A stretch of DNA of 64,000 nucleotides from Streptomyces sp. NBC_01454. GTDB taxonomy: Bacteria; Actinomycetota; Actinomycetes; Streptomycetales; Streptomycetaceae. A program made the position numbers and the translations under genes. This document shows, in pieces, positions 4,449 through 19,325 of the stretch. The notes below the pieces were generated by a model that was not told where the DNA came from, made no database searches, and worked only from the letters and a program-made list of their open reading frames with translations. Each line of letters opens with the position of its first letter. The first letter of the stretch is position 1. The stretch lies in assembly GCF_036227565.1 (NCBI RefSeq), contig NZ_CP109460.1, positions 4,774,001 to 4,838,000 on the forward strand, written 5' to 3'.

Positions 4449-6491
4449 TCACCAGTCGATGTCGTCCGGCGGTTCCGGGAGGTCCTCCTCCTCGGGCTCC
4501 GGGGGCAGGTGGCCGGCACCGGGCCCGGTGGCTGCGGTGGCTGCGGTGGCCCGGGATGTCCCGGCTGCCGCCGTGGAGCCGGTGGGTGCGCCCTCGGTGG
4601 CCTCGGCGCTCTCGTGCGGGTCCCGTCCCGCCAGTACCTCCAGGATCTGCGCGCCGTACTTCGCGAGCTTGTTCTCGCCGACTCCGTTGACCGTGCCCAG
4701 TTCGGCCGTCGTCGCGGGCCGGAGGGTGGCGATCTCCCGCAGCGTCGCATCGTGGAAGATCACATACGCCGGGACGCCCTGCTCCTTGGCCGTGCCGCCC
4801 CGCCAGCCGCGCAGCGCCTCGAAGGCCGGCAGCGCCTCCGCCGGCAGATCCACCGGCGCCGCGCGCTTGCCCTTCGCCTTCGCCCTGGCCGCCCGCGCCG
4901 GCTTCTCCGGCTCCCGGCGCATCGGCACCTCGCGCCCGCCGCCCAGCACCTCGCCGCTGGCTTCCGTGAGCACCAGCGTGCCGTAGTCACCCTCGACGGC
5001 GAGCAGCCCCTGGGCCAGCAACTGCCGTACGACGCCCCGCCATTCGGCTTCCTTGAGGTCGTCCCCCACACCGAACACGCTCAGCCCGTCGTGGTCGAAC
5101 TGGATGACCTTGGCGGTCTTCTTCCCCTGCAGGATGTCGATGATCTGGCCCGCGCCGAACTTCTGCCCGCGCTCCCGCTTCAGCCGGACGATCGTGGACA
5201 GCAGCTTCTGCGCGGCCACCGTGCCGTCCCAGGTCTGCGGCGGGGCCAGGCAGGTATCGCAGTTGCCGCACGCGGTGCTCTCCTGCCCGAAGTAGGCCAG
5301 GAGGCGCACCCGCCGGCACTCCACCGTCTCGCACAGCGCCAGCATCGAGTCGAGGTGGGCCGTCAGCCGCCGCCGGTGTGCCTCGTCCCCCTCGGACCCG
5401 TCGATCATCTTCCGCTGCTGGACCACGTCCTGCAGCCCGTAGGCCAGCCAGGCCGTCGACGGCTGACCGTCGCGCCCGGCGCGCCCGGTCTCCTGGTAGT
5501 AGCCCTCCACCGACTTGGGCAGATCCAGATGCGCCACGAACCGCACGTCCGGCTTGTCGATGCCCATGCCGAACGCGATCGTGGCGACCACGATCAGCCC
5601 GTCCTCGCGCAGGAACCGGGACTGATGCGCGGCACGGGTCCGGGCATCGAGGCCCGCGTGATACGGCACCGCGGCGATGCCGTTGTCCACCAGGAACTGC
5701 GCGGTCTTCTCCACGGAGGCCCGCGACAGGCAGTAGATGATGCCCGCGTCCCCCGCGTGCTCGCTCCGCAGCAGTTCCAGGAGCTGCTTCTTGGGCTCGC
5801 TCTTCGCCGCGATCCGGTACTGGATGTTCGGCCGGTCGAAGCTCGCCACGAAATGGCGGGCCTTCTCCATCCGCAGCCGGGAGCTGATCTCCGTATGGGT
5901 GGCCTCGGTGGCGGTGGCGGTCAGCGCGATCCGCGGCACCTCGGGCCAGCGCTCGTGCAGCATCGACAGCGCCAGATAGTCCGGCCGGAAGTCATGGCCC
6001 CACTGGGCGACACAGTGTGCCTCGTCGATGGCGAAGAGCGAGATCTTTCCCCGGTCGAGCAGCCTCAGCGTCTGCTCGACCCGCAGCCGCTCGGGCGCCA
6101 GATAGAGCAGATCCAGCTCCCCGGACAGGAACTCCGCCTCGACGAGCCGCCGCTCCTCCAGATCCTGGGTCGAATTGAGGAATCCGGCCCGCACGCCGAG
6201 CGCCCGGAGGGCGTCGACCTGGTCCTGCATCAAGGCGATCAGCGGCGAGATCACCACGCCCACACCGCCCCTGACCAGCGAGGGGATCTGGTAGCACAGC
6301 GATTTGCCGCCGCCGGTCGGCATCAGGACGACCGCGTCCCTGCCCCCTATGACGTGCTCGATGATCTCCTGCTGACTGCCGCGGAACGCCTCATAGCCGA
6401 ACACCCGGCGCAGCACCTGCACCGCCTCGCTTGCCTCCGAAGCGCCTTCCACATCCATGTCCACGACCACTTCCACGTCCGCCAGAGCCAT
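4449..6491 (-). CDS. recQ: ATP-dependent DNA helicase RecQ
   Basis: A 680-residue 3'-5' DNA helicase acting in recombination and replication-fork repair. All RecQ parts are in order: motif 0 around FRGSQQ (36-41), Walker A TGGGKS (59-64), DEAH box (156-159), the TGRAGRDG arginine-finger segment (335-342), the four zinc cysteines C392, C408, C411 and C414, winged-helix domain, and a C-terminal HRDC domain ending in the helix-hairpin NGVGENKLAKYG near 600. Length matches the family apart from a charged N-terminal extension and an acidic proline-rich tail. No strong ribosome site precedes the ATG at 6491, so the exact start is less certain. It appears to be a single-gene unit. Confidence 0.95.
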   Translation of the reverse strand: MALADVEVVVDMDVEGASEASEAVQVLRRVFGYEAFRGSQQEIIEHVIGGRDAVVLMPTGGGKSLCYQIPSLVRGGVGVVISPLIALMQDQVDALRALGVRAGFLNSTQDLEERRLVEAEFLSGELDLLYLAPERLRVEQTLRLLDRGKISLFAIDEAHCVAQWGHDFRPDYLALSMLHERWPEVPRIALTATATEATHTEISSRLRMEKARHFVASFDRPNIQYRIAAKSEPKKQLLELLRSEHAGDAGIIYCLSRASVEKTAQFLVDNGIAAVPYHAGLDARTRAAHQSRFLREDGLIVVATIAFGMGIDKPDVRFVAHLDLPKSVEGYYQETGRAGRDGQPSTAWLAYGLQDVVQQRKMIDGSEGDEAHRRRLTAHLDSMLALCETVECRRVRLLAYFGQESTACGNCDTCLAPPQTWDGTVAAQKLLSTIVRLKRERGQKFGAGQIIDILQGKKTAKVIQFDHDGLSVFGVGDDLKEAEWRGVVRQLLAQGLLAVEGDYGTLVLTEASGEVLGGGREVPMRREPEKPARAARAKAKGKRAAPVDLPAEALPAFEALRGWRGGTAKEQGVPAYVIFHDATLREIATLRPATTAELGTVNGVGENKLAKYGAQILEVLAGRDPHESAEATEGAPTGSTAAAGTSRATAATAATGPGAGHLPPEPEEEDLPEPPDDIDW

Positions 6492-6938: not shown

Positions 6939-7813
6939 GTGCTGATTTTGCAGCGTGATATCGAAGTGAAACTCCTGCGCACTTTTGTCGCCGTGGTCGA
7001 TGAGAAGGGATTCGCCCGCGCCGCTCAGGCACTCCATGTGACCCAGCCGACCGTGAGCCAGCAGATCAAGCGTTTGGAGACCATTATCCAGGCGCCGCTG
7101 TTCCAGCGCACCAAGCGCCCGTTACAGCTCACCCCCGCAGGTCGCGAGGTGATGGCGCACGCCCGCCGCGTCATCCTGCTCAACAATGAGGTGCTCAGCA
7201 AGATATCGGCCTTCAGTAGCCAGGAATGGTTCAGCATGGGCTGCTCGGTGCATTTCGCCGACGGGCTGCGGACCATGCTCGCCCAGCTCGCGGTGGAGCG
7301 GCCACGCCTCCGCTGCGCCATGGCGACCGGCCTCAGCGCCGTGCTCGCCGACCAGCTCGCCCAGGGGGAACTGGAGGCGGCGGTGCTCCTGGGGACCCGG
7401 ACGCCGCGCAGCGAGATTCTGGGGCGGCTGCGCCTGGCCTGGTACGGACAGGCCCTGCCCGCCCCGGGGGAGCGGCTGCCGGTGGCGCTGGTCAGTGAAC
7501 GCTCGGCGCTGAGCAACCGGATCATCGAGACGCTCGCCGAGCGCAAGGTCGCCTGGCACTCCGTCCCCCGGTGCTCCGACCCGCTGGCGGTCCGGGCCTC
7601 CATCCAGGCGGGACTGGCGTATACGGCGCTGCCGCCAACGCCCACCACCACCACCCCTCGCTGCGCCCCGCGCCGCTCGGTGCCCTCGGCCCCGCACCGG
7701 AGCCGCTGCCCGTCTATCTGGCGTTCTCGCCCTCGGTGCGTGAGCCCGTCGTCGACGCGGCGCGCGCGGCCGCCCGTGCGACGCTCAAGGACGTTCCGCT
7801 GTCCCCTCCTTGA
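6939..7813 (+). pseudogene. LysR-family regulator interrupted by a single-base frameshift
   Basis: The N-terminal winged HTH is clear (KLLRTFVAVVDEKGF, then the HVTQPTVSQQIKRLE recognition region), followed by the start of the effector domain. Near position 7634, after GLAYTALP, the frame loses family sense and continues as out-of-frame residues. From about the same point the frame one base earlier carries the expected end: HHHHPSLRPAPLG, then VYLAFSPSV, stopping at 7813. One missing base, probably a G in the CTGCCGCC stretch, explains this; restoring it gives about 291 residues, the normal LysR length. It is either a real loss of function or a sequencing error. GTG 6939 is the chosen start; GTG 6966 is also possible. 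It sits at the left edge of the aromatic gene cluster. Confidence 0.75.
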
Positions 7814-7898
7814 TCGCCGCCCCGGCCCGGCCACCCCGGCCGTCACCACCACGACCGTCACCACCACGACCGTCGTCCCCGCGGCCGTCCCCGCCCGG

Positions 7899-9137
7899 TC
7901 AGTAGGAGCTCCGGGCGGCCCTGGGCGCCGCCAGCTTCGGGCCGTAGGGCGCGGAGTCCAGCCAGGCTCCCGCCCTGCGCCCGGTGCCCGCCACGGCCGC
8001 GGCGACGCGCCGGCGCAGCCAGACCGACGGACGGTGGGCCAGCATGTGCTCCAAGGCGGAGCCGGCGCAGGCGCGGTTGTACGCGGCCGCCTCCTTCCGC
8101 TCCTGGGCGAAGCGGAGGATCTCCGCCTGGGCCGCCCCGGACGTACCGGCCGTCAGCGCCGCCTGCGCGGCCCGCACCGCCCGGATCGCGTCCGGGATGC
8201 TGGAGTTCATGCCGCGGGCCCCGAACGGCGCGAACAGGTGTGAGGCCTCACCCGTGAGCAGCACCCGGCGGTGGGCGTCGGTGAAGTCGGCGGCCACCTG
8301 CTGGGCGAACCGGTACGTCGACACCCAGCGCACCCGCTCGCCGTACGCCTCGGGCAGCACCCGGGGTATCCAGCGCCGCAGCCCCTCCGGTGAGGTGAAC
8401 CGGTCCGGGTCGTCGTGCACCAGGAGGTTGAGGTCGACCCGCCAGCCGCCCGCGAACGGAACCAGGAGGACGTTGCGGCCGCCGACCCGCGGGTGCTTGT
8501 AGTGGAAGACGCGTTCCAGGAGCAGCGGGTGGGCGGGATCGTCGTCGAGGTCCACCACCACGAAGGTGTTGCGGGAGCGCGGCCCCTCCAGGGGGATGCC
8601 GGCGGCGGAGCGCAGCGCGGAGCGCGAGCCGTCCGCCGCGATCACGTAGTCGGCCGCCCACTCGCCTCCCGTGGAGTCCACGAGCCGCACCCCGTCCGGG
8701 GTGCTCTCGGCGGAGCGCACCTCCACGCCCCAGTGGAACTCCACCCCGCCCTCCCGGCAGGCGGCGGCCATCAGGTCCTCGGTGTGCACCTGCGGAAGGC
8801 TGGTGAACGGCGGCAGCCCGGCGCGGCCGGCCGGCGGGTAGGTCCGGGTGTAGATCTCCTCGCCCGCCCAGTACGACCTCTTGGTCGCCCACATCAGACC
8901 GCGGCCGGCGATCTCGTGGCCCAGGCCGGGGCTGACCTGCTCCAGCTCGCGCAGCGACGTGCCGTGCAGGTAGGCGGCGCGGCTGCCCGGACGGACCGCG
9001 TCCCGGGTGCGCTTCTCCAGGACCACCGCGGGCAGCCCGGCCGCGCGCAGGGCCAGCGCGGCGCTCAGCCCGGCCGGACCGGCGCCGACGACGAGTACGG
9101 GACGGCGGTCGCTACGGCCGGCAGTAGTGGCGCTCAT
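7899..9137 (-). CDS. FAD-dependent aromatic monooxygenase (PheA/TfdB-like)
   Basis: A 412-residue class A flavoprotein hydroxylase, expected to use NAD(P)H and O2 to hydroxylate an aromatic ring. The FAD Rossmann motif VGAGPAG is at 17-23, the second FAD/NADPH motif is AADGSRSALR at 167-176, and the third is GEASHLFAPFGARGMN at 296-311, a variant of the usual GDAAH...GxGMN. The C-terminus is shorter than in phenol hydroxylases, with no thioredoxin-like domain. The start overlaps the preceding small gene by four bases, so it is the last gene of a coupled minus-strand group with MFS exporter, VOC protein and small protein. This context makes it a likely tailoring enzyme of the aromatic cluster. 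The substrate is unknown. Confidence 0.85.
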   Translation of the reverse strand: MSATTAGRSDRRPVLVVGAGPAGLSAALALRAAGLPAVVLEKRTRDAVRPGSRAAYLHGTSLRELEQVSPGLGHEIAGRGLMWATKRSYWAGEEIYTRTYPPAGRAGLPPFTSLPQVHTEDLMAAACREGGVEFHWGVEVRSAESTPDGVRLVDSTGGEWAADYVIAADGSRSALRSAAGIPLEGPRSRNTFVVVDLDDDPAHPLLLERVFHYKHPRVGGRNVLLVPFAGGWRVDLNLLVHDDPDRFTSPEGLRRWIPRVLPEAYGERVRWVSTYRFAQQVAADFTDAHRRVLLTGEASHLFAPFGARGMNSSIPDAIRAVRAAQAALTAGTSGAAQAEILRFAQERKEAAAYNRACAGSALEHMLAHRPSVWLRRRVAAAVAGTGRRAGAWLDSAPYGPKLAAPRAARSSY

Positions 9138-9391
9138 GCTTCGTCCTCCGTCGCGAGGTGCAGGGTCCGGGAGGTGAAGGAGACGATGCGGCCCGCGAGG
9201 CCGCCGGTCAGCGCGGCGTGCCAGACCGCCGTGGGCATCCCGGTCACCTCCCGGCGCAGCACCACCTCGCGCTCCGTGGTGGCGAGCTCCAGATAGTCGC
9301 CGACCGCGCGGACATCCATCCCGGCGGCCTCGGCGGTCCGCACCACGGGCGCGAACTCCGGTACGGCGAGTACGTACACGGCGAGCGTCAC
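9134..9391 (-). CDS. small conserved-looking protein of unknown function
   Basis: 85 residues from GTG 9391, with an AGGGAGGT ribosome site about ten bases upstream. It overlaps the VOC gene at its start and the monooxygenase at its end by four bases each, so it is translationally coupled to both and surely expressed with them. The sequence has a hydrophobic start (TLAVYVLAVPEF), a central EVVLRREVTG segment and no membrane helix, cysteine pair or known motif. It may be a small accessory or ferredoxin-like-fold subunit of one of the neighbouring oxygenases. I do not recognise the family. Confidence 0.65.
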   Translation of the reverse strand: MTLAVYVLAVPEFAPVVRTAEAAGMDVRAVGDYLELATTEREVVLRREVTGMPTAVWHAALTGGLAGRIVSFTSRTLHLATEDEA

Positions 9392-10014
9392 GGCCCCGCC
9401 ACCTCCCTGTCGTTGCGGACCGGCGCGGCCTTCCGCACGAGCTCTGCCTTCCGCTGCCACAGCGTCTGTGCGCAGGGGCGGGGCGACTCGGCGACGTCGG
9501 CGAGCGCGCGCAGCGTCAACTCCGCGTCCCGCGAGTCGAGTGCCGACATCGCGCGCAGCGGCCTGGTGATCTCCAGCTGGAGTCCGTTGGGGTCGTCGAA
9601 GTAGATCGATTCGATCAGCTCGTGCGGCAGCGGCGGGGTGACCCGCACCCCGTGCGCCTTGAGCCTCTCCCGCCAGGCCAGCAGCTCCTCCTCGGTGTCC
9701 ACATGGAAGGCGAGGTGCCGGGAGCGGTGCATGAGGTCGCTCGGCTGCTCCTCCTCGGGCAGGCCGAAGTAGTAGAAGAACGCGATCCGGTTGCCCTTGC
9801 CCATGTCGAAGAAGAAGTGCACGAAGTCCGGGTAGTCCTCGGTGACCCAGCCGGTCGCGGTGATCGCGTGCACGAGCGGCATGCCCAGCACCTGGGTGTA
9901 GAACTCGTAGGTCGCACGCGGCTTCCAGGTGACGAAGGCCAAGTGGTCGACTCCGTCCACCCGCGGGCTCGGCGGGCCGGCCTGCGGACGGGCGGACGGT
10001 GAGGTGAGGGTCAA
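9388..10014 (-). CDS. VOC-superfamily protein (extradiol dioxygenase/glyoxalase-like)
   Basis: About 208 residues from TTG 10014, which has GGAGGAG just before it; this start is the best available but the spacing is tight. Two beta-alpha-beta-beta-beta modules are visible. Metal ligands of type I extradiol dioxygenases are present: His24 in VDHLAF, His100 in SRHLAFHV and Glu149 in LQLEIT. It also has the DPNG turn and a 55-residue helical C-terminal extension. The complete H-H-E triad suggests a working metal site, for ring cleavage, glyoxalase-like or isomerase chemistry. It lies between the MFS exporter (49 bases upstream) and the small protein it overlaps, hence in the same transcript as the FAD monooxygenase. 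Confidence 0.8.
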   Translation of the reverse strand: MTLTSPSARPQAGPPSPRVDGVDHLAFVTWKPRATYEFYTQVLGMPLVHAITATGWVTEDYPDFVHFFFDMGKGNRIAFFYYFGLPEEEQPSDLMHRSRHLAFHVDTEEELLAWRERLKAHGVRVTPPLPHELIESIYFDDPNGLQLEITRPLRAMSALDSRDAELTLRALADVAESPRPCAQTLWQRKAELVRKAAPVRNDREVAGP

Positions 10015-10063
10015 TGCTCCTCCAGAGAGCAGGGCGGCCGCGGGCCGCGCCGTCGGAATGGGG

Positions 10064-11485
10064 TCAGCGCGCCGCGGCCGGGGACCGGCCGCGCAGCCCC
10101 GAGCCGGCGACGAGCGCACCGACGAGCAGGCCCAGGCCGCCGACGACCAGCGCCCAGCGGGTGCCGGCCGCCGTGGACGAGGACAGGTTGAGGACCACGC
10201 CGAGGACGGCGACACCGAGTGAGGCGCCCACCTGGCGGGCGGAGTTGAGTGCTCCGGCGCCGATGCCGGCCAGCTCGGCCGGTACGGAGCCGGCGACCCC
10301 GGCGACCAGGGCGGGCAGGGCGAAGGAGACACCGAAGCCGAAGGCCAGCAGGCCCACCACGGTGGCGACGAGCGCCCCGGCGGAGTTCCCGGTGAACGGC
10401 GCCTGGATCAGCGCCCCGGCACCCATGAGGACGAAGCCGATGGTGGCCGGGCGCCGCGGCCCGATCCGGCCGACCAGCCGTCCGGTGTAGATCGGGTTGA
10501 AGGCGGTGGGCAGGGTCAGCGGCAGGAAGGCGAGGCCCGCGGCGAACGACGAGTAGCCGCGGCCTTCCTGGAAGAACAGCGACAGCGCGAACAGCAGCCC
10601 GGACAGACCGAAGTTGGCGAGCAGGCCGGCCACCAGCGCGGAGGAGAAGCTGCGGCTGCGGAACATCCGCAGCGGCAGCATCGCCGCGTCGCCGGAGCGC
10701 AGTTCCGCGACGAGGAAGACCACCGCCGCGGCCGCCGCCAGCCCGAAGCCGCCGAGCACCCCGCCGCCGGTCCAGCCCTTGTCCGGGCCCTCGATCAGCG
10801 CGTACACCAGCGCGGCCAGTGCGACGACGGCGCTGAGCTGCCCGGTCAGGTCCAGCCCGCTGCGCTGCTTGCGCGCGGTCTCCGGGGCCAGCCGTGCGGT
10901 GATGACCAGACTGACCAGCGCCAGCGGCACGTTGATCAGGAAGATGGCGCGCCAGCCGACCGTGTCGGTGAGCATCCCGCCCACCAGCGGACCGGCGGCG
11001 AGCGCCGCGCCCGTGATCGCCGCCCAGGCCCCCACCGCGCGGGCCCGCTCGGCGGGGTCGGTGTAGGAGTGGACGATCAGGGCCAGGGAGGACGGCAGCA
11101 GCAGCGCCCCGGCGACGCCCAGGGCCAGCCGGAGCACCACCAGCATGCCGAGCGTCGTCGCGACGGCCGAGACGCCGGACAGCACGCCGAACGTCACCAG
11201 GCCCCAGAGGAAGACCCGGCGGCCGCCGAAGCGGTCGGAGAGCCAGCCCGCGGTGAGCAACAGGGCGGCGAAGGTGATGGTGTAGCCGTTGGTGACCCAC
11301 TGGAGGCCGCTCAGGCCGGTGTGCAGATCACCGGCGATGGCGGGCAGCGCCACCGAGACGATCGTCATGTCGAGCAGCACCATGAAGTAGCCGAGGGAAA
11401 GCCCGATCAATAAGGTGCGCGAGGGCTTACCGGTTCGCTTCGGTGCGGCAACGGAATCCCGCTCAGGTTCCGCCCGTGTCGTCAT
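10064..11485 (-). CDS. MFS exporter, DHA2 (14-helix) family
   Basis: A 473-residue drug:proton antiporter-type transporter. Fourteen hydrophobic segments can be traced; motif C-like and motif A-like signatures are present (LDMTIVSVALP at the first helix, GWLSDRFGGRR in the first cytoplasmic loop). ATG 11485 has a GGAGGAG site eight bases upstream. It is the first gene of the minus-strand group MFS-VOC-small protein-FAD monooxygenase and is divergent from an intact LysR gene. That arrangement is typical of product export and self-resistance controlled by the neighbouring LysR protein. The substrate is inferred only as the cluster product. Confidence 0.9.
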   Translation of the reverse strand: MTTRAEPERDSVAAPKRTGKPSRTLLIGLSLGYFMVLLDMTIVSVALPAIAGDLHTGLSGLQWVTNGYTITFAALLLTAGWLSDRFGGRRVFLWGLVTFGVLSGVSAVATTLGMLVVLRLALGVAGALLLPSSLALIVHSYTDPAERARAVGAWAAITGAALAAGPLVGGMLTDTVGWRAIFLINVPLALVSLVITARLAPETARKQRSGLDLTGQLSAVVALAALVYALIEGPDKGWTGGGVLGGFGLAAAAAVVFLVAELRSGDAAMLPLRMFRSRSFSSALVAGLLANFGLSGLLFALSLFFQEGRGYSSFAAGLAFLPLTLPTAFNPIYTGRLVGRIGPRRPATIGFVLMGAGALIQAPFTGNSAGALVATVVGLLAFGFGVSFALPALVAGVAGSVPAELAGIGAGALNSARQVGASLGVAVLGVVLNLSSSTAAGTRWALVVGGLGLLVGALVAGSGLRGRSPAAAR

Positions 11486-11599
11486 AGGAATTCTCCTCCG
11501 TTTCGGAATCTCTGCTTTCGCGGCCCGCGCTGTTGGGGGCGGCACAATCCATTCAACCGGAATCGGAAGGGGAATTGAGGGTGGTGACGACGGGGATGG

Positions 11600-11629
11600 C
11601 CTATGGGTACCATCGGCCCAGCCGATAGG
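11600..11629. promoter_or_regulatory. palindromic operator candidate in MFS/LysR divergent region
   Basis: A perfect dyad ATCGGC-CCA-GCCGAT at 11612-11626 lies within an outer pair CCTAT/ATAGG (11600-11604 and 11625-11629). It is 24 bases before the LysR start codon, and the mRNA start of the exporter would be on the other side. Position fits autoregulation by the LysR protein and control of the exporter operon. Confidence 0.5.
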
Positions 11630-11652
11630 TCAGCTAGGGGGGCGGCACAGTC

Positions 11653-12528
11653 GTGGAGCTTCGGCATCTTCGGACGTTCGAAACGGTGGCCAGGACACTC
11701 AGCGTCACGCAAGCGGCCAAGGAACTGCACTACGCACAATCCAGCGTCAGCGATCAAATTCAGGCGCTGGAGCGTGATCTGGGGGTCGAGCTGCTCGACC
11801 GGTCGCAGCGCCGGGTGCGGCTGACCCCGCAGGGTGTGGCGCTCTCGGAGTACACGGACAAGATCCTCAAGCTGATGGAGGAGGCGCGCTGGGCGGTCTC
11901 CCGGCCCGGCGCAGAACTCGCCTTCGGCGCCCTGGAAACCCTCTGCCAGCACCTGCTGCCGGAGGTGCTCGCGCACTACCGCTCGCTGCATCCGCAGGCC
12001 CGGGTGCGGGTGGCGCAGGACAACCGCGGCGAGCTCTACAAGGCCGTGCGCCGCGGCGACTTGGACCTGTGCCTGACCTTCGGCGACCCGCCGGCCGACC
12101 CGAGCCTGCGTGCCGAGACGCTGGCCGAGGAGCCGCTGGCGGTCATCGTGCCGCCGGGGCACCATCTCGCCGAGCGCGGCGAGGCCGGTCTCGAGGAGCT
12201 CGCCAGGGAACCCTTCCTGGCCACCGAGCGGGGCTGCGGCTTCCGGGAGATGTTCGACAGCGCCTTCGGGGCGGTGGCCGCGAAGGAGCCGGTCGCGGAG
12301 GTGTCCAGCATCGGCACCCTCGGCGCGTGCGTGGCGGCCGGGATGGGCTGCGCGCTGCTGCCGTTGACGGCGGTGCGCGATCAGGCGAGCCGCGGCGAAG
12401 TGGCCGTCGTGAAGGCCGGCGACGGCGACCTGCACACGACGGTGACCATGACCTGGCTGGACCGCAACTCCGCGAACCCGAACCTCATCGGCTTCCAGAC
12501 CGTGCTGCGCCGGCAACTGGGCGGCTGA
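11653..12528 (+). CDS. LysR-family transcriptional regulator
   Basis: 291 residues, the usual LysR length, starting at GTG 11653. The winged HTH is clear: MELRHLRTFETVARTLSVTQ, then HYAQSSVSDQIQALERDLG. The effector-binding domain is intact through residue 290, with the LATERGCGFR and AGMGCALLP segments typical of the fold. It is divergent from the MFS-VOC-monooxygenase operon and convergent (17 bases apart) with the AMP-dependent ligase. It is therefore the likely pathway-specific regulator of the aromatic cluster. The second LysR gene of the cluster is broken, so this one may act alone. The inducer is unknown. Confidence 0.9.
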   Translation: MELRHLRTFETVARTLSVTQAAKELHYAQSSVSDQIQALERDLGVELLDRSQRRVRLTPQGVALSEYTDKILKLMEEARWAVSRPGAELAFGALETLCQHLLPEVLAHYRSLHPQARVRVAQDNRGELYKAVRRGDLDLCLTFGDPPADPSLRAETLAEEPLAVIVPPGHHLAERGEAGLEELAREPFLATERGCGFREMFDSAFGAVAAKEPVAEVSSIGTLGACVAAGMGCALLPLTAVRDQASRGEVAVVKAGDGDLHTTVTMTWLDRNSANPNLIGFQTVLRRQLGG

Positions 12529-12545
12529 CGGCGGCGGGCGGCCGG

Positions 12546-14237
12546 TCACCGGTCGCCCTCGCCGGCCGCCGGCACGGGGCGTGACGCGGGCGCCGGCGGC
12601 CGCGGAAGGGGCGGCAGCGGGATCGACGTCAGCCGGTTCCGGGCGATCTTGCCGGTGACCGTGGTCGGCAACCGGTCCACGACCACGAGCTCCTCGGGCA
12701 GCTTGTACGTGGCCAGTCCCTTGCGGGACAGATGCCCGGTCACCTCGTCCAGCGTCAAGCCGGTGCCGTCGCGGAGCGCGGCCAGCAGACACGAGCGCTG
12801 GCCCAGCCGCGGATCGGGCCGCCCCACGATCGCGTGCTGCGCCAACTGCGGCAGATCGCCGAGCAGTTCTTCGACCTCGAGCGCGCTGAACTTCAGCCCG
12901 CCGCGGTTGATCAGCTCGTCGGCGCGGCCCCGGTAGCCGACCGAACCGTCCGGGTGGAGCACGGCCAGGTCGCCGGTGCGCAGCCAGCCGTCGGCGGTGA
13001 GCGCGGCGCGGGTCAGCTCCGGCGCGCCGTGATAGCCGCGGAACAGGAAGGGGCTGCGGTACTGGAGTTCTCCGGTCGCGCCCGGCCCGGCGCGGCGGCC
13101 CTCGCGGTCCACCACCCTGACCTCGCCCCCGGACACCGGCCGCCCGATGGTGGACGCCGCCTCGGGCGGATCGCCGGGACGGGTGAAGGTCCCCGCGCCG
13201 ATCTCCGTCATCCCCCACTGCACGACGAGCCGCGCGCCCATCGTCCGCCGCACGCCCTCGGCCAGCTCACGGGGCACCGGAGCGCCGCCGGTGCGTACCT
13301 CCCGCAGAGCCAGAGGCGTACCCCCGGCCTCCGCATCCTCCGCATCCTCTGCCAACAGGGTGACGAGATCGCGCAGTTGAGCCGGAACCAGGAACGCCGT
13401 GGTGGCCGAGACAGCGCGCAGGGCGCCGGCGAACCGCCGCGGGTCCCATCCGTCGAACAGCCCGACCCGGCCGCCGGTGACCAGGGCCAGATGGACCGAG
13501 AGCAGCCCGAAGGCATGACTGAGCGGGCTCGCGGAAACCAGTGTGTCCCCGGGGCCCAGGCCGCCGTCCGCCGCGACGGCCGCCGCGTTGCCGAGCAGCC
13601 CACCGTGGCGGTGCACACACAGTTTCGGGCGCCGGGAGGTCGTCCCGGAGGAGGCGAGCAGCATCAGCGGGGCCTCCGGGTCCCGCGGCGGATCCGGAAG
13701 CGCCCCGGGGGCCGGGTCGGGTGCCTCGTCCAGCAGCTCCGCCGCGCTCGGCAGCGTCCCCGCGCCGGACACACCGCGCCCCGTCCGCGCGGGCCCCTCG
13801 CCCTCCACCACCCATGCGTGCCGCAGCGAGCCGCACCCCTCGCGCACCGCGAGGATCTCCCCGACGCGGTCACGGCCGCGGTAGGAGCCCCGCGCCACCA
13901 GCGCGGCGGCTCCGGCCTGGGCGACCAGGGACTGCACCTCGTGGGCGCCGTACGCGCAGTGCAGCGGCAGCAGCAGCACGCCGAGCCGGGCGGTGGCCGC
14001 GTGCAGCACCACCAGTTCCCAGGAGTTCGGCAGCTGCGCCGCCAGTACGTCACCGGACCGCAGTCCCCGCACGTACAGCGCGCCGGCGGTCCGTTCGGCC
14101 TGGCGCAGACAGTCCTGCCAGGTCCGGCCGATCCCGTCGTCCCACACGGCGGGATCCGTACGGCGGGCCGCGGCACGCTCGAGAGCACCGGTGAACGTGA
14201 AAGCGGTCGTCGTCGATTCCGTGGGGAGAGCGTTCAC
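12546..14237 (-). CDS. AMP-dependent acyl/aryl-CoA ligase or adenylating enzyme
   Basis: A 563-residue ANL-superfamily enzyme that should adenylate a carboxylic acid and pass it to CoA or another acceptor. The P-loop motif is SSGTTSRRPK at 196-205; the usual second glycine (SGTTGxPK) is replaced. Other core motifs are intact: WGMTE (341-345), GWLRTGD (417-423), GRADELINRGG (437-447) and the catalytic lysine K530 in TTVTGKIARNRL. No carrier-protein domain is fused. GTG 14237 is preceded by GGAGG at seven bases. In this cluster it probably activates an aromatic acid; benzoate-, salicylate- or cinnamate-type substrates are all possible. It is divergent from the second biosynthetic operon. Confidence 0.85.
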   Translation of the reverse strand: MNALPTESTTTAFTFTGALERAAARRTDPAVWDDGIGRTWQDCLRQAERTAGALYVRGLRSGDVLAAQLPNSWELVVLHAATARLGVLLLPLHCAYGAHEVQSLVAQAGAAALVARGSYRGRDRVGEILAVREGCGSLRHAWVVEGEGPARTGRGVSGAGTLPSAAELLDEAPDPAPGALPDPPRDPEAPLMLLASSGTTSRRPKLCVHRHGGLLGNAAAVAADGGLGPGDTLVSASPLSHAFGLLSVHLALVTGGRVGLFDGWDPRRFAGALRAVSATTAFLVPAQLRDLVTLLAEDAEDAEAGGTPLALREVRTGGAPVPRELAEGVRRTMGARLVVQWGMTEIGAGTFTRPGDPPEAASTIGRPVSGGEVRVVDREGRRAGPGATGELQYRSPFLFRGYHGAPELTRAALTADGWLRTGDLAVLHPDGSVGYRGRADELINRGGLKFSALEVEELLGDLPQLAQHAIVGRPDPRLGQRSCLLAALRDGTGLTLDEVTGHLSRKGLATYKLPEELVVVDRLPTTVTGKIARNRLTSIPLPPLPRPPAPASRPVPAAGEGDR

Positions 14238-14810
14238 GAAGAATCCTCCGTTCCGGGCAGAACCAACAGTCCTTGCCTTGCCGCACGGATTCTGGGCGGA
14301 AATCGAGCGGATGGTCCAGGGGAAAACCGATAAGAACCCCTGATCCGCTGCACCGGTCCGGCCGCGATAACAAAAGCCCCCTCCCGTGATGTCGCGACGG
14401 AGCGCGGGCCCGAAGATAGGCGCGGACGCCCGCTGTCGATTGATTCTCCCGCCGCCGTTCGGCCGCGCCGATGGATGCCCCCCACACGGACAACGCGCAG
14501 CCGTTCACCGCTGCACAACCGGCGCCCGGGAGCCGGACCGCCGCGCCGCGCACCCATAAGAAAACCCACTAACGAAGCCCTGGCCTCCGGTTGAAAGTGT
14601 CACCTCGAAACGTTTCGGCAGGAGCATTCGGTGACTCCGATGAATGCCATCGAGAAGGCCGAACGTGCCGCGTTTCCCCTGGTCAATCGCTATGTCGAGC
14701 CGAGTTCCGGACGAGCGGTCCGGCGCATTCCGGTACCCGTGCGCCCAGGGGCTTGCCGGGCGCCGGAAAACCACCACAGAATTCCGACGGCCCCGATACA
14801 GGAGGTATCG
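14238..14810. other. divergent control region of the cluster with palindrome and alternative start
   Basis: 573 bases between the ligase (minus) and the VOC-like gene (plus). At 14606-14617 is the perfect 12-base palindrome CGAAACGTTTCG. Just after it, an AGGAG site precedes GTG 14631 by six bases, and that frame runs without stop into the VOC-like gene, giving a possible 60-residue N-terminal extension. Codon use in 14631-14810 is less GC-biased than in the gene proper. The region should hold the promoters of both operons. Confidence 0.5.
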
Positions 14811-15638
14811 ATGTCCGTAGTCCGCGCGTCTCACACCACAAAGGAAAGTGTGCGTTCCGTCGGCGAATTACCCTCCGTGGACAGCGAATTGCCGGTGGGC
14901 AGTCCATTCTCCGGCACCGATCTGCGGCGGCTTGCCGACGCGATCCGCGACGCCGGCCTCGCGTCGAGCGCCCCGGTGTCGTCGCTTCTCGAACCGGCCG
15001 GGCCACAGGGCGGGGCCACGTCCCTGACCGAGCGGAACTGCCGGTTCGACCACTGCGCAGTCCTGCTGTTTCCGCAGACCCTCGCCGCGGGGTTGGACCA
15101 TCTGGAACAGTGCGGCCTGGCACCGCTGCCCACCGTGCCGAGCACGGTGGTGCGCCGCAGGCTGAGCGAACGCCACGGTCTCGACCCGGCGCGCTGCGAC
15201 GTCCACCTCACCCGGCTCCGGCTGGACCTGCCGGACGGACGACGCCATCCGGCGGTCGAGGTGTTCCTCTTCCCCCGCGACTGCGCCGCGTTCGACCCGC
15301 GGCTGGCCGCGTCCGAAGTCGCGCACGGCTTCGAGGACCACACCGCGTTCGTGGTGGGCCGGCCGAGCCTCCCGCTGCTGGAGAACCTCGTCACGGCCTG
15401 GCGTGCCGAGGCCGGCCTGCTGTGGGAGGGCGGCGGACACAACCCCCACGAGGGCCCCCAGGGTTCGACCGTCCTGTACTTCGTCCGCGAGCACGGGCAG
15501 CCCTCCCGGCGCCGCCGCTTCGAGCTGCACTGCCCCGGCGATCTGCGGGCCTTCCTCGACCGGGTCCCCGTGGACACCGAGGCCGTACGCCATGCCTACC
15601 GGGAGTGGCGGCACACCGGCCCGGACGTACCCGCGTGA
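14811..15638 (+). CDS. unrecognised protein with a VOC-like metal triad
   Basis: 275 residues from ATG 14811, which has AGGAGGT six bases upstream. I do not recognise the family directly. Its layout resembles a large two-module VOC fold: His81 in FDHCAVLL on a first strand, His177 in EDHTAFVV on the matching strand of the second half, and Glu238 in RFELHC near the end, the H-H-E order of extradiol dioxygenases. Between them is a distinctive EGGGHNPHEGPQG loop. The first 60 residues look disordered. It is the first gene of the plus-strand operon with O-methyltransferase, DAHP synthase and ABM monooxygenase, so a biosynthetic enzyme role is likely. An in-frame GTG at 14631 offers a 335-residue version. 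Confidence 0.65.
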   Translation: MSVVRASHTTKESVRSVGELPSVDSELPVGSPFSGTDLRRLADAIRDAGLASSAPVSSLLEPAGPQGGATSLTERNCRFDHCAVLLFPQTLAAGLDHLEQCGLAPLPTVPSTVVRRRLSERHGLDPARCDVHLTRLRLDLPDGRRHPAVEVFLFPRDCAAFDPRLAASEVAHGFEDHTAFVVGRPSLPLLENLVTAWRAEAGLLWEGGGHNPHEGPQGSTVLYFVREHGQPSRRRRFELHCPGDLRAFLDRVPVDTEAVRHAYREWRHTGPDVPA

Positions 15639-15690
15639 GACCCGCCCCCGGCCCGCACGCCGCCCCGCCCCTACCCACACCGGAGACCCC

Positions 15691-16392
15691 ATGCTGCGCA
15701 ACGACACGCTGAGCCCCAGGAATCTGCCGCTCACCCCCGAGCTGCACGACTACCTGCTCGACCAGGGCCGGATGACCCCCGACCCGCTCCTGGCCGAGGT
15801 GATCGCCTGCACCGGCGCCGCGATCCCCGACCAGGCACACATGGTGGTCGCGCCCGAGGAGGGCGCCCTGCTGACCTTCCTGGTGCGCCTCCTGGGCGCC
15901 CGCCGCATCGTCGAGGTCGGGACCTTCACCGGCTACTCCGCGCTCTGCCTGGCCCGCGGCCTGCCCGCCGACGGCTCGCTGATCACCTGCGATGTCTCCG
16001 CCGAATGGACCTCGCTCGCCCGCGACTTCTGGGACCGCGACGGCGTCGGCGACCGCATCGAGCTCCGCCTCGGCCCCGCACTGGACACCCTGCGCGCCCT
16101 GCCCGCCGAGCCGCACCTGGACCTGGCCTTCATCGACGCCGACAAGCCCGGCTACATCGGCTACTGGGAGGAACTGGTGCCGCGCCTGCGCCCCGGCGCC
16201 CTGCTCCTCGCCGACAACACCCTCTTCAACGGCGAGGTGCTCGCGGAACAGCCCGGCGAAAAGGCCGCGGCCATCCGTGAGTTCAACGCGCACGCCCGCC
16301 GCGACCCCCGCGTCGAGCTGGTCATGCTGCCGATCGCGGACGGCCTGACGCTGGCCCGCCGGCTGCCGGCCGGGGAGCCGCCGCTGCGGTGA
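15691..16392 (+). CDS. SAM-dependent O-methyltransferase, caffeoyl-CoA/catechol type
   Basis: 233 residues, the normal size for the metal-dependent small-molecule O-methyltransferase family. The SAM-binding motif is VEVGTFTGYSAL (74-85). Metal and substrate residues are in FIDADK (147-152, with Asp149) and ADN (174-176). Such enzymes methylate one hydroxyl of a catechol, which fits hydroxylation by the FAD monooxygenase in the same cluster. It lies 52 bases after the VOC-like gene and 81 before DAHP synthase, on the same strand. GGAG precedes the ATG. The regiochemistry and exact acceptor cannot be read from sequence. Confidence 0.88.
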   Translation: MLRNDTLSPRNLPLTPELHDYLLDQGRMTPDPLLAEVIACTGAAIPDQAHMVVAPEEGALLTFLVRLLGARRIVEVGTFTGYSALCLARGLPADGSLITCDVSAEWTSLARDFWDRDGVGDRIELRLGPALDTLRALPAEPHLDLAFIDADKPGYIGYWEELVPRLRPGALLLADNTLFNGEVLAEQPGEKAAAIREFNAHARRDPRVELVMLPIADGLTLARRLPAGEPPLR

Positions 16393-16473
16393 CGCGAGCC
16401 CGGACGACAGGAACCAGGGCCAGGACAGGCCGGAGCCAGCAAGCACACAGCGAACCACAACACGGGGGCCGGT

Positions 16474-17952
16474 ATGCAGTCAGCACCGCACGGCAGGACC
16501 ACTCACACGACCCGACCGCCCGGCCACCCGCCGCTGCGCCTTCCCGACGGACCCGGCACGGGGCCCGACGTGCGCGCCGCCTGGGGCATCGGCTCGGCCG
16601 CACAGCAGCCGGACTGGCCCGACCCGGTCCTCGCCGCGGCCATCGGCGGCGAACTGGCCCGGCTGCCCGGCCTGGTGACCTGGGAGGAGGTCCGTCTGCT
16701 GCGGACCCTGCTCGCCGAGGCCGCGGCCGGTGACCGGCACGTGATCCAGGCGGGCGACTGCGCCGAGGACCCGGCCGAGTGCGCGCCGTCGGCGGTCACC
16801 CGCAAGGCCGGGCTGCTCGACGCCCTGGCCGGGGTGATGGAGGCCGGCACGGGCAAGCCGGTGGTGCGCATCGGACGGATCGCCGGGCAGTTCGCCAAGC
16901 CGCGCAGCGCCCCGACCGAAGCCGTCGCCGGTCTGACCCTGCCCGTCTACCGCGGTCACCTGGTCAACGCCCCAGAACCCACCCCGCCGGCGCGCCGGGC
17001 CGACCCGCAGCGGATGCTGGACTGCTACCGCGCCGCGTCTCACGCCCTCACCTGCCTGCGGCAGCGCACCAGCCCCCGGACACCGGCCACCGCCGCACCG
17101 GTGTGGGCCAGCCACGAGGCGCTCGTCTTCGACTACGAGCTGCCGCTGCTGCGCCGCACCCCTGCCGGCGAGACCCTGCTGACCTCCACCCATCTCCCCT
17201 GGATCGGCGAGCGCACCCGGCACCCGGACGGCCCGCACGCCATGATGCTGGCGCACGTGGCCAACCCCGTCGCCTGCAAGGTCGGGCCGACGACCCGGCC
17301 GGAGGACCTCCTCGCCCTGTGCGCCCGCCTCGACCCGGGCCGCGAGCCCGGCCGGCTCACCCTCATCGCCCGCATGGGCGCCCGGACGGCCGCCACCGCC
17401 CTCCCGCCCCTGGTCGCCGCCGTGCACCGGGCCGGCCACCCCGTCGTGTGGCTGTGCGACCCGATGCACGGCAACACCCTCAAGTCCCCTACGGGCACGA
17501 AGATCCGCTCGGTCCGCGCACTCCTCACCGAGGTCCGCGCCTTCCTCACCGCCGTCACCGAGGCCGGCGGCACCCCCGCCGGCCTCCACCTCGAAACCAC
17601 CCCGTACGACGTGACGGAATGCGTCTGGGACGACCCGGCGGAACGCGCTCCCGCGCGCCCCATCCCCGCGGAACTCGACCCCGCCGAACGCGACTTCGCC
17701 GAGAGCGGCAGCACCGAACGCGACTTCGCCGAGAGCGGCAGCACCGAACGCGACTTCGCCGAGAGCGGCAGCACCGAACGCGACGTCACCGAACGCGACA
17801 TCACCGGCGAAGAGCAGGCCGGCACCCCGGCCCCCGCCTCCCACTGCGACCCCCGCCTCAACCCGGCCCAGGCCCTCGAGGTGGCCCGCGCCTGGGCAAC
17901 ACCCCCACCCCCACGCCCCACCCCCCGCCTGGCCGGCTCCGCCCTCCACTGA
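16474..17952 (+). CDS. class II DAHP synthase with a repeat insertion
   Basis: 492 residues. It condenses phosphoenolpyruvate and erythrose 4-phosphate to DAHP, the entry step of the shikimate pathway. Class II motifs are present: QAGDCAE (92-98, metal cysteine C97), KPRSAPTE (142-149), CDPMHGN (328-334), TEC (381-383) and CDPRLN (458-463). The family normally joins the last two by a short loop. Here about 65 residues intervene, rich in E, R, D and S with three copies of a ten-residue unit. Dedicated DAHP synthases occur in clusters for shikimate-derived products such as phenazines. Its presence here argues that the aromatic core comes from chorismate or an earlier intermediate. Whether the insert affects feedback control is unknown. 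Confidence 0.9.
   Translation: MQSAPHGRTTHTTRPPGHPPLRLPDGPGTGPDVRAAWGIGSAAQQPDWPDPVLAAAIGGELARLPGLVTWEEVRLLRTLLAEAAAGDRHVIQAGDCAEDPAECAPSAVTRKAGLLDALAGVMEAGTGKPVVRIGRIAGQFAKPRSAPTEAVAGLTLPVYRGHLVNAPEPTPPARRADPQRMLDCYRAASHALTCLRQRTSPRTPATAAPVWASHEALVFDYELPLLRRTPAGETLLTSTHLPWIGERTRHPDGPHAMMLAHVANPVACKVGPTTRPEDLLALCARLDPGREPGRLTLIARMGARTAATALPPLVAAVHRAGHPVVWLCDPMHGNTLKSPTGTKIRSVRALLTEVRAFLTAVTEAGGTPAGLHLETTPYDVTECVWDDPAERAPARPIPAELDPAERDFAESGSTERDFAESGSTERDFAESGSTERDVTERDITGEEQAGTPAPASHCDPRLNPAQALEVARAWATPPPPRPTPRLAGSALH
17686..17805 (+). repeat. 30-bp tandem repeat inside the DAHP synthase gene
   Basis: Three identical 30-base units (17686-17715, 17716-17745, 17746-17775) encode ERDFAESGST, followed by two 15-base half units encoding ERDVT and ERDIT. 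Perfect DNA identity of the first three copies suggests recent slippage or recombination. Confidence 0.95.
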
Positions 17953-18102
17953 CCGACCCCGCCCGCCGCGGGGGCCCCGGCCCCCATGACGACCCCGACC
18001 AACCCCCGACGCCTCCTTCCCCGAAGCCTCCTCCCCCGACCCCGAAAGTCGCACCGGCCGTGCAGCCCGCACAGGCCGACCAGGAAAGGAACACCACACA
18101 CC

Positions 18103-18435
18103 ATGAGTGAAACCGTGATCCGCACCGACGACGGCACCTTCGCCATGATCAACGTCTTCGAAGTGGAGCCCGACCGGCAGAAGGAACTGGCCGACGTGAT
18201 GAGCGAGGGCGCCGACCGCTTCATCCGGCACCGTCAGGGATGCATCTCGGTGAACATCCTCACCAGCCTCGACGGCAAGCGCCTCGTCTACTACGCCCAG
18301 TGGCGCAGCAAGGCCGACATCAAGGCGACCATGGGCGACCCCAACGTCCAGTACTACCGCGACAAGGCCGCCGAACTCGCCAAGCCCGACCCGCACGCCT
18401 ACACGGTGTTCTCCGTCCACCACCCGGAGAACTGA
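18103..18435 (+). CDS. antibiotic biosynthesis monooxygenase (ABM) family protein
   Basis: 110 residues in a single ferredoxin-like ABM domain. Recognisable parts are the FAMINVFEVEPDRQKE start, the QGCISVNIL strand, the VYYAQWRS strand and the terminal YTVFSVHH strand. ABM proteins such as ActVA-Orf6 oxidise phenolic polycyclic intermediates without cofactor; others act as heme-degrading or quinone-forming enzymes. ATG 18103 has AGGAAAGGA upstream. It is the last gene of the plus-strand operon, 150 bases after DAHP synthase, and is closed by a perfect terminator 39 bases after its stop. A role as a late oxidase in the cluster is inferred from position. Confidence 0.85.
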   Translation: MSETVIRTDDGTFAMINVFEVEPDRQKELADVMSEGADRFIRHRQGCISVNILTSLDGKRLVYYAQWRSKADIKATMGDPNVQYYRDKAAELAKPDPHAYTVFSVHHPEN

Positions 18436-18473
18436 CGGACGGGCAGCCCCTGGCACCGGAAGCGAGAACGGAG

Positions 18474-18505
18474 AAGCCAGGTCGGGCATGGGTCCGACCT
18501 GGCTT
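18474..18505 (+). terminator. rho-independent terminator at the cluster right end
   Basis: A perfect 12-base inverted repeat (AAGCCAGGTCGG / CCGACCTGGCTT) has an 8-base loop and starts 39 bases after the ABM gene. It marks the likely end of the biosynthetic operon. Confidence 0.8.
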
Positions 18506-18836
18506 TACCGCCCCGGAATCATCCAGACCGTCCCCCGCTTCATGAGCGCGCGACGACTCACGGCGGCGTACCTGGCTCTGCTCGCTCTCACCGCCGCACT
18601 GTCCGCCGTCTTCGGGCCGCCCGGCCCCTTCCTCAGGTGCCACACGAGCACCGACCCACGCCCCCCCCCCCCCCCCCCGCCACTCAACGACCTGATTCAT
18701 CACCCCACCCGGCTCGCGGTGCCGGCGTTTCTCTCCGGCCGCGCGGAGGCGAAGTTCCGTGCCGGCCCTGGCAATGCTGTGGGTGGGGGCCGAAAACGCC
18801 TGGCGGCCGGATCGTGGTCGGCGGCACCCTGAAGCC
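18506..18836. other. intergenic region with an 18-base C homopolymer
   Basis: About 330 bases without a convincing gene. At 18661-18678 there are 18 consecutive C residues, very unusual even for a high-GC genome and a likely site of length variation or assembly error. A reading frame from 18488 crosses it but depends on the tract length and does not look like protein. Confidence 0.5.
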
Positions 18837-19236: not shown

Positions 19237-19252
19237 CGCTGGTGCTTCTCTG

Positions 19253-19325
19253 TGCCCCCGGCAGGATTCGAACCTGCGACACCCGCTTTAGGAGAGCGGT
19301 GCTCTATCCCCTGAGCTACGGAGGC
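19253..19325 (-). tRNA. tRNA-Arg, anticodon CCT
   Basis: A 73-base cloverleaf on the minus strand. The acceptor stem is GCCTCCG with CGGGGGC (one G-T pair), followed by the D arm, the anticodon stem CCGCT/AGCGG with loop CTCCTAA giving anticodon CCT, a five-base variable region, and the T arm GCAGG-TTCGAAT-CCTGC. The discriminator is A. CCA is not encoded, as is common in Streptomyces. It reads the rare AGG codon. Confidence 0.95.

What the first reader, a model, noticed from the sequence alone, without database searches (positions are those of the whole stretch)
6939..18505. Compact aromatic natural-product cluster with no matching known pathway
Seen: an 11.5 kb set with LysR control, an MFS exporter, FAD hydroxylase, AMP-dependent ligase, catechol-type O-methyltransferase, class II DAHP synthase, ABM oxygenase and two proteins with VOC metal triads, closed by a perfect terminator. 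Known: a dedicated DAHP synthase marks clusters whose core comes from the shikimate route. Inference: the cluster makes a hydroxylated, O-methylated aromatic compound. It lacks PKS, NRPS, isochorismatase, anthranilate or aminobenzoate synthase, so the ring-forming step is unclear and may be done by one of the two VOC-like proteins or by genes elsewhere.
Basis: partly seen in the sequence, partly recalled or inferred. Interest (0 to 1): 0.75.

Follow-up and report, generated by a model that had tools for sequence, protein, structure and literature searches.

The report
Orphan shikimate-fed cluster, new ring-former candidate
A soil bacterium carries a compact, mobile set of eleven genes that seems to build an aromatic acid from primary metabolism with an undescribed enzyme family and then probably modifies, perhaps opens, the ring; neither the product nor that enzyme family is known yet.

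Summary
It is syntenic in 11 of 11 close relatives found in Streptomyces, Kitasatospora and Winogradskya (one cut by its contig end); the window's flanking genes were found beside only 2 of the 11. No characterised cluster turned up in the literature searches; antiSMASH/MIBiG were not available. The "VOC-like" protein P8 (14811-15638) matches no Pfam or NCBIfam model. It belongs to an undescribed family with a predicted VOC fold, conserved H81/E150/H177/E238 and three invariant arginines. Relatives are fused to an O-methyltransferase beside a PobA-type 4-hydroxybenzoate hydroxylase (PobA in 20 of 20 loci examined), or stand beside other flavin hydroxylases. In a sister cluster sharing VOC, exporter, ligase and regulator, a polyketide synthase of 6-MSAS layout occurs where the window has DAHP synthase plus P8. 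I infer that P8 makes the aromatic acid, most likely 4-hydroxybenzoate from chorismate. The other VOC protein differs: it carries an extradiol-dioxygenase-like motif and its relatives keep company with aryl ligases and salicylyl-CoA-type hydroxylases, so the product may be ring-opened. All enzyme functions are inferred; none is shown.

The parts
6939..7813 (+). LysR regulator 1; frame lost near 7630-7640 in this assembly, open (291 aa) in 10 relatives
   Evidence: PF00126 85 bits; frame comparison; 11/11 loci
7899..9137 (-). class A FAD-dependent aromatic hydroxylase (FMO), 412 aa
   Evidence: PF01494 150 bits; nearest solved structures PnpA, RubL, GrhO5; median 80% identity over 11 loci
9134..9391 (-). 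85-aa protein of no known family, overlaps FMO and VOC by 4 bases each (assumed starts)
   Evidence: no Pfam/NCBIfam; 11/11 loci; 42% homologue next to VOC in the sister cluster L077
9388..9960 (-). VOC protein, predicted extradiol-type ring-cleavage dioxygenase (H6, H82, E130; H113...Y120..DPNG...E130)
10064..11545 (-). MFS exporter, EmrB/DHA2 type
   Evidence: TIGR00711 238.7 bits over cut-off 230.2
11653..12528 (+). LysR regulator 2
   Evidence: PF03466 156 bits, PF00126 83 bits
12546..14237 (-). acyl/aryl-AMP (or CoA) ligase; Ala where salicylate/DHB-type ligases have Asn
   Evidence: PF00501 221 bits; alignments
14811..15638 (+). P8: member of a family without Pfam/NCBIfam model; proposed aromatic-acid-forming enzyme
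15691..16392 (+). class I SAM O-methyltransferase (caffeoyl-CoA/catechol OMT family)
   Evidence: PF01596 182 bits; relatives common in the genus (123 of 382 genomes at E<=1e-70)
16474..17952 (+). diverged class II DAHP synthase, with a 30-bp x 4.1 repeat at 17684-17806
   Evidence: PF01474 388 bits; TIGR01358 369 bits, under cut-off 614.7
18103..18435 (+). ABM-domain protein (small monooxygenase family)
   Evidence: PF03992 35.6 bits over cut-off 23.1
18474..18505 (+). perfect 12-bp hairpin after the + strand operon, no T-run

Best explanation
The 11 genes are one mobile biosynthetic cluster made of two modules. Build module (+ strand, P8-OMT-DAHPS-ABM): the dedicated DAHP synthase raises shikimate-pathway flux. 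P8, a new enzyme of predicted VOC fold with a glyoxalase I-like H-E-H-E site, aromatises a shikimate-pathway intermediate; most likely it eliminates pyruvate from chorismate to give 4-hydroxybenzoate. The OMT methylates a later catechol. Processing module (AMP ligase and FMO-small-VOC-MFS with LysR2): the ligase activates an acid without an ortho hydroxyl, the FMO hydroxylates the ring, the VOC protein opens it as an extradiol-type dioxygenase, and the MFS protein exports the product. Shown: gene content, synteny, borders, conserved residues, partners. Inferred: every reaction, their order, and the product.
For: Gene order identical in 11/11 loci. Across P8 homologues, H81, H177, E238, R117, R121, R236, E169, E175, Y223 are 71/71 and E150 is 70 E + 1 D (71 rows, 68 different domain sequences). 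P8's usual partner is a class A flavin hydroxylase. PobA-type in 20/20 clade-C loci examined; in 19/20 the P8 domain is followed in the same ORF by more than 250 residues, the 20th being cut by a contig end; Pfam shows an O-methyltransferase there in the 3 full-length proteins tested. PobA-type also in Solirubrobacteraceae L015 and Streptomyces AV19 L013; a different FMO in 5/5 clade-B regions. P8-linked PobAs keep Tyr201, Arg214, Tyr222, Pro293 and Tyr385 in 23/23 rows, 22 loci; the natural protocatechuate hydroxylase instead has Trp201 and Phe385 (PMC10770758, abstract and passages seen), so 4-hydroxybenzoate is favoured. UbiC (PF04345) is in 0 of 25 P8 genomes searched. Sister cluster L077 has LysR, MFS, small, VOC (73%) and AMP ligase but within its 20 kb no P8, OMT, DAHPS, ABM or window-type FMO; it has a PKS of 6-MSAS layout instead. 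Ligase: His-Ala in 11/11 window-type rows examined versus His-Asn in 3/3 sister loci. VOC: relaxed extradiol motif in 10/10 examined, exact in the two catabolic-looking loci; 2 of 20,000 shuffles.
Confidence: 0.4

Rival explanations
1. P8 is a 3-dehydroshikimate dehydratase: it gives protocatechuate directly; the flavin hydroxylase partners make gallate- or hydroxyquinol-type acids and the OMT methylates those.
For: 3-dehydroshikimate has vicinal oxygens suited to a VOC metal site (chemistry recalled). Thr294 of P8-linked PobAs is Ser/Ala/Cys in 23/23; T294A/Y385F is recalled as the gallate-forming PobA mutant, and the listing shows both mutant names with gallic acid in the abstract of PMC9063093 (listing only).
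Against: Tyr201 and Tyr385, replaced in the natural protocatechuate hydroxylase, are kept in 23/23 P8-linked PobA rows. Three invariant arginines fit a dicarboxylate such as chorismate better (inference).
Confidence: 0.15
2. P8 is a tailoring enzyme that acts after the hydroxylase (for example on the catechol or its methyl ether), and the ring acid comes from ordinary metabolism or from genes elsewhere.
For: P8 is usually next to a hydroxylase and fused to an OMT in clade C, which says that the steps are linked but not in which order. No gene other than P8 and its hydroxylase recurs next to P8 across the clade B or clade C regions examined, so no DAHP synthase is shared there.
Against: In the window the cluster pays for its own DAHP synthase and has no other recognisable ring-former; the sister cluster L077 has a PKS where P8+DAHPS stand here. 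P8 lacks the extradiol motif, 0/71.
Confidence: 0.3
3. The product stays aromatic: the VOC protein is an epimerase-, resistance- or binding-type VOC protein and does not open the ring.
Against: The fourth ligand position of the epimerase/glyoxalase site is Tyr (AFFYYF), and His113/Tyr120/DPNG/Glu130 form an extradiol-like motif. The only other homologues in the genus at E<=1e-30 (3 of the 7 genomes with a match, of 382 searched) sit with aryl-AMP ligases and salicylyl-CoA 5-hydroxylase-like enzymes.
Confidence: 0.35
4. It is a catabolic cluster for plant aromatics, not a biosynthetic one.
For: AMP ligase + hydroxylase + VOC resemble the catabolic-looking loci L091 and L093; LysR regulators are typical of aromatic catabolism (recalled).
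Against: A dedicated diverged DAHP synthase, an OMT and an EmrB/DHA2-type exporter fit degradation poorly; no further ring-fission pathway genes were recognised among the eleven.
Confidence: 0.06

Closest known systems
XimC chorismate lyase of xiamenmycin biosynthesis (PMC4053376, passages seen), and UbiC
   Same: Proposed reaction: chorismate to 4-hydroxybenzoate as the entry step of a small Streptomyces cluster with a CoA-ligase-like gene and an FAD enzyme; XimC also lacked identity to E. coli UbiC.
   Different: XimC is 196 aa and shares almost 30% identity with putative chorismate pyruvate-lyases; P8 is 275 aa, has a predicted VOC fold and no PF04345 match.
PobA-type 4-hydroxybenzoate 3-monooxygenase + OMT units (vanillate-type chemistry)
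   Same: Relatives of P8 sit beside PRK08243 enzymes over cut-off (3 of 3 tested) and are fused to an OMT.
   Different: The window cluster has no PobA; its FMO belongs to another subfamily and its OMT is PF01596, not PF00891. I saw no description of the pair plus P8 in the listings.
salicylyl-CoA 5-hydroxylase / gentisyl-CoA route (Sdg-type, recalled)
   Same: Ligase + class A flavin hydroxylase + dioxygenase logic; VOC homologues lie in such loci (L077, L091, L093).
   Different: Window ligase has Ala for the salicylate-type Asn and its FMO does not list PRK08255 among its best 25 NCBIfam hits.
type I extradiol dioxygenases (LapB, BphC, catechol 2,3-dioxygenase) and single-domain VOC enzymes
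   Different: 190 aa, one VOC domain; first motif position differs; substrate unknown; epimerases score higher.
glyoxalase I / methylmalonyl-CoA epimerase (VOC, four metal ligands)
   Different: No sequence similarity found; extra helix and N-terminal part; invariant Arg set.

Membership tests
VOC superfamily (for P8) | paired beta-alpha-beta-beta-beta fold | tested here: inconclusive
VOC superfamily (for P8) | conserved metal-ligand set | tested here: inconclusive
   H81, H177, E238 71/71 and E150 70 E + 1 D, but that they are the ligands rests on the weak fold alignment; metal not testable
chorismate lyase UbiC family (PF04345) | sequence match to the family | tested here: not met
   P8 has no Pfam hit even at E 10 in the window member; no Chor_lyase among hits of 34 members
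chorismate lyase (function) | chorismate to 4-hydroxybenzoate + pyruvate | not testable with these tools
   context inference only
type I extradiol dioxygenase (for VOC 9388-9960) | H-H-E facial triad without fourth ligand | tested here: met
   by sequence only: H6, H82, E130 invariant in 12 rows, fourth position Tyr; metal not tested
type I extradiol dioxygenase (for VOC 9388-9960) | PS00082 motif (recalled) | tested here: inconclusive
   exact in G718 and G426, met in 10/10 only if the first position is relaxed
type I extradiol dioxygenase (for P8) | extradiol motif | tested here: not met
   0 of 71 even with relaxed first position
salicylate/2,3-DHB-AMP ligase (for the AMP ligase) | Asn after the conserved His in the aryl pocket | tested here: not met
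   Ala in window and 10 relatives, Asn in 3 sister loci and in the 4 solved ligases shown
class II DAHP synthase | family match | tested here: met
   PF01474 388 bits; NCBIfam equivalog cut-off not reached, 369 of 614.7
known characterised gene cluster | match of the full gene order | tested here: inconclusive
   paper searches aimed at the cluster found none; MIBiG and antiSMASH not available

The most novel reading that the evidence does not exclude
P8 belongs to a new, widespread actinobacterial family of metal-dependent ring-forming lyases (VOC fold, chorismate or 3-dehydroshikimate to an aromatic acid), used alone, fused to methyltransferases and paired with flavin hydroxylases; and the window's cluster builds an aromatic ring with it only to open that ring again with a second VOC enzyme, giving a non-aromatic natural product from the shikimate pathway.
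Probability: 0.22. Interest if true: 0.78.

Novelty: new variant of a known kind. Interest (0 to 1): 0.6.

Why it matters
If P8 is a ring-former, about one in six genomes of the genus searched (63 of 392) holds an unrecognised entry to aromatic acids, now mostly named hypothetical protein or methyltransferase where a name is given. It would offer a further enzyme fold for making 4-hydroxybenzoate or protocatechuate, useful in engineering, and would give cluster-mining tools a marker for a class of shikimate-derived clusters that lack PKS and NRPS genes. The second VOC protein makes it testable whether bacteria also make natural products by building and then opening an aromatic ring.

Tried and rejected
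Rejected: catabolic cluster (dedicated DAHPS, exporter, OMT); salicylate/2,3-DHB chemistry (ligase lacks the Asn); P8 as an extradiol enzyme (0/71 motif); P8 as UbiC; a fusion claim resting on long open frames alone (Pfam finds PF00891 in the C-terminal part of the 3 full-length proteins tested and only the OMT dimerisation domain in the one cut by its contig).

Led nowhere: promoter/terminator scan; Rfam (only the tRNA); PDB profile search with the P8 alignment (one chance hit at E 1.7); profile comparison of P8 with VOC (probability 0.2%); Solirubrobacteraceae family search (1 of 146 genomes, the one already known); phylum search (3 of 396); plasmid tblastn (7 records, all under 60% identity; the S. 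clavuligerus record carried no annotation there). The 50 rows shown hold no UbiC-type chorismate lyase; that list re-ranks only Foldseek's own hits. I did not test the recalled likeness of the clade-B hydroxylase to PhzS.

Counting notes: the scan used two short peptide patterns and is not exhaustive. The 23 PobA rows hold one locus twice (22 loci). One search examined 20 of the 58 lower-scoring P8 places (those with loci, L018 included). AMP ligase rows: window, L002 and L004-L012; L003 was left out. VOC rows in the motif count: window, L002, L004, L005, L007, L011, L012 and three sister loci; L003, L006, L008-L010 were not included. Flank test: 11 called window flank genes against L002-L012; the loci hold only about 1-2.4 kb before LysR1, and L002-L004 end soon after the cluster, so the test is partial. 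The tree is a quick one, with L063 and L064 on long branches. Paper listings were capped (20 of 63; 10 of 17; 15 of 30).
Full report
What is there. The window lies at C1:4774001-4838000 of a 9.46-Mb genome whose nearest named relatives for these genes are Streptomyces kronopolitis and S. sioyaensis. Between 6939 and 18435 there are eleven genes. On the minus strand are FMO (7899-9137), an 85-aa ORF (9134-9391), VOC (9388-9960) and MFS (10064-11545), the first three overlapping by 4 bases with the starts assumed here, and the AMP ligase (12546-14237). On the plus strand are LysR1 (6939-7813), LysR2 (11653-12528) and an apparent operon of P8 (14811-15638), OMT (15691-16392), DAHPS (16474-17952) and ABM (18103-18435). 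After ABM follows a perfect 12-bp hairpin at 18474-18505 without a T-run.

Is it a unit. A scan of one genome per species with two peptide patterns from the P8 alignment gave 14 loci. In 11 of them (L002-L012), from Streptomyces, Kitasatospora and Winogradskya humida, the eleven genes are present in the same order and orientation; L003 lacks ABM because the contig ends. Median identities over those loci run from 67% (P8) to 87% (VOC). The neighbouring RecQ-like gene (4449-6491; named from its sequence, by recall) is found beside the cluster only in the two nearest relatives (L002, L003). In the other nine none of the window's 11 called flanking genes was found, apart from paralogous hits to the cluster's own MFS gene; these loci hold about 1-2.4 kb before LysR1 and, except L004, about 7 kb after ABM. 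So the cluster seems to move as a block with borders at LysR1 and ABM. The three other loci (L013-L015) are P8 relatives outside such clusters.

P8's company. In 392 genomes of the window's genus (Streptomyces, judged by its relatives) 63 have a P8 homologue. A quick tree separates three groups, each on one side of a branch with SH-aLRT 97-100. Group A (4 of 392 genomes) is the cluster described here; the three others carry all eleven genes (L066, L080, L081). Group B (7 genomes) stands beside a class A flavin hydroxylase in 5 of 5 regions examined. In group C the P8 domain is the N-terminal part of a longer protein: in 19 of 20 loci more than 250 residues follow it, the 20th being cut by a contig end, and a PobA-type hydroxylase lies next to it in 20 of 20. 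Pfam shows a class II O-methyltransferase, PF00891, in the C-terminal part of the 3 full-length proteins tested. In the regions labelled C, PobA was found in 12 of 14 (misses L063, L065), in L064 P8 is not fused, and no PobA lies within the S. clavuligerus plasmid region. PobA-type enzymes also accompany P8 in the distant Solirubrobacteraceae locus L015 and in L013; all three tested score over the PRK08243 cut-off of 351 bits (410.7, 446.7, 362.7), though under the TIGR02360 equivalog cut-off. An annotated Kitasatospora plasmid shows the same pair as '4-hydroxybenzoate 3-monooxygenase' and 'methyltransferase'. A database search with one fusion gave 442 proteins; the 120 listed carry PF00891.

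What the hydroxylase partner says about the acid. Numbering follows PaPobA, set by the alignment to solved PobA 7on9 (offset 2) and by the residue roles in PMC10770758 (abstract and passages seen). The P8-linked PobAs keep Tyr201, Arg214, Tyr222, Pro293 and Tyr385 in 23 of 23 rows (22 loci) but have Met for Ser212 in 23 of 23 and Ser (15), Ala (7) or Cys (1) for Thr294. The natural protocatechuate hydroxylase XaPobA has Trp201 and Phe385 and keeps Ser212. So the para-hydroxy side of the pocket is kept, which favours 4-hydroxybenzoate, while the changed carboxylate side warns that the true substrate may differ. A UbiC-type chorismate lyase (PF04345) is found in 0 of 25 P8 genomes searched; of 14 control genomes E. 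coli rang. A Streptomyces chorismate lyase unlike UbiC has a precedent, XimC (PMC4053376, passages seen).

The swap. The 85-aa ORF led to a sister cluster in genome G628 (L077). It has LysR (46%), MFS (57%), the small ORF (42%), VOC (73%) and an AMP ligase (33%), but within 20 kb no match to P8, OMT, DAHPS, ABM or the window's FMO. In their place are a 1784-aa polyketide synthase with KS, AT, DH, KR and ACP domains, the layout of 6-methylsalicylate synthase (recalled), and a flavin enzyme with partial similarity to salicylyl-CoA 5-hydroxylase. The shared set is a processing module; the ring builder differs. This is the best argument that P8, fed by the cluster's own DAHP synthase, supplies the aromatic acid here. 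The genome's primary DAHP synthase lies elsewhere (C1:6146329, 706 bits). The ligases agree: the sister enzymes have the His-Asn of salicylate-type ligases, the window type has His-Ala in 11 of 11 rows, so the window's acid should lack an ortho hydroxyl.

Model and limits. Chorismate -> 4-hydroxybenzoate (P8) -> hydroxylation (FMO or ABM) -> O-methylation (OMT) -> activation (ligase) -> further hydroxylation (FMO) -> ring opening (VOC) -> export (MFS), under two LysR regulators. Only gene content, synteny, borders, residues and partners are shown; every reaction and the order are inferred, and the roles of the small ORF and ABM are unknown. The OMT has relatives in 123 of 382 genomes of the genus at E <= 1e-70 and says little about the product.

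Novelty. Of ten searches of the paper library, four were aimed at the cluster, three at a function like P8's (52, 53, 92) and three at side questions (78, 84, 87). No listed title or abstract start describes the cluster, P8 or the PobA/P8-OMT unit; some listings were capped, and subscription papers, MIBiG and antiSMASH were not available, so the claim is limited. As a cluster it is a new variant of a known kind; as an enzyme family P8 may be new.

Noticed in passing
window 7600-7700: The first LysR gene loses its frame here in this assembly while ten relatives read through to 291 aa; either a real lesion or a sequencing error.
   Followed up: partly
window 17684-17806: Inside the DAHP synthase gene a 30-bp unit is repeated 4.1 times (93% matches), adding a repeated FAESGSTERD-type stretch.
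   Followed up: partly
window 18661-18678: A run of 18 C just after the cluster.
   Followed up: no
G000:C1:8239123-8240256 (L073, L076): A second diverged class II DAHP synthase far from the window, perhaps marking another shikimate-fed cluster in the same genome.
   Followed up: no
L077 (G628:C1:4432001-4452000): Unassigned cluster with a PKS of 6-MSAS layout, a salicylyl-CoA 5-hydroxylase-like enzyme, VOC, MFS and LysR; a UbiD-family gene nearby is closest to BagN/FevL but under that model's cut-off (476 of 1000 bits).
   Followed up: partly
clade-C loci, for example L032, L034, L036, L107: Proteins mostly named methyltransferase (442 hits, 120 listed) carry an unrecognised N-terminal P8 domain; the name hides part of the protein.
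   Followed up: yes
L091 (G718) and L093 (G426): Catabolic-looking loci with VOC, aryl-AMP ligase and a salicylyl-CoA 5-hydroxylase-like enzyme; the VOC protein may be the ring-cleavage enzyme of a CoA-dependent salicylate route.
   Followed up: partly
window 19252-19325: tRNA-Arg (cct) just beyond the cluster, a possible integration landmark.
   Followed up: no
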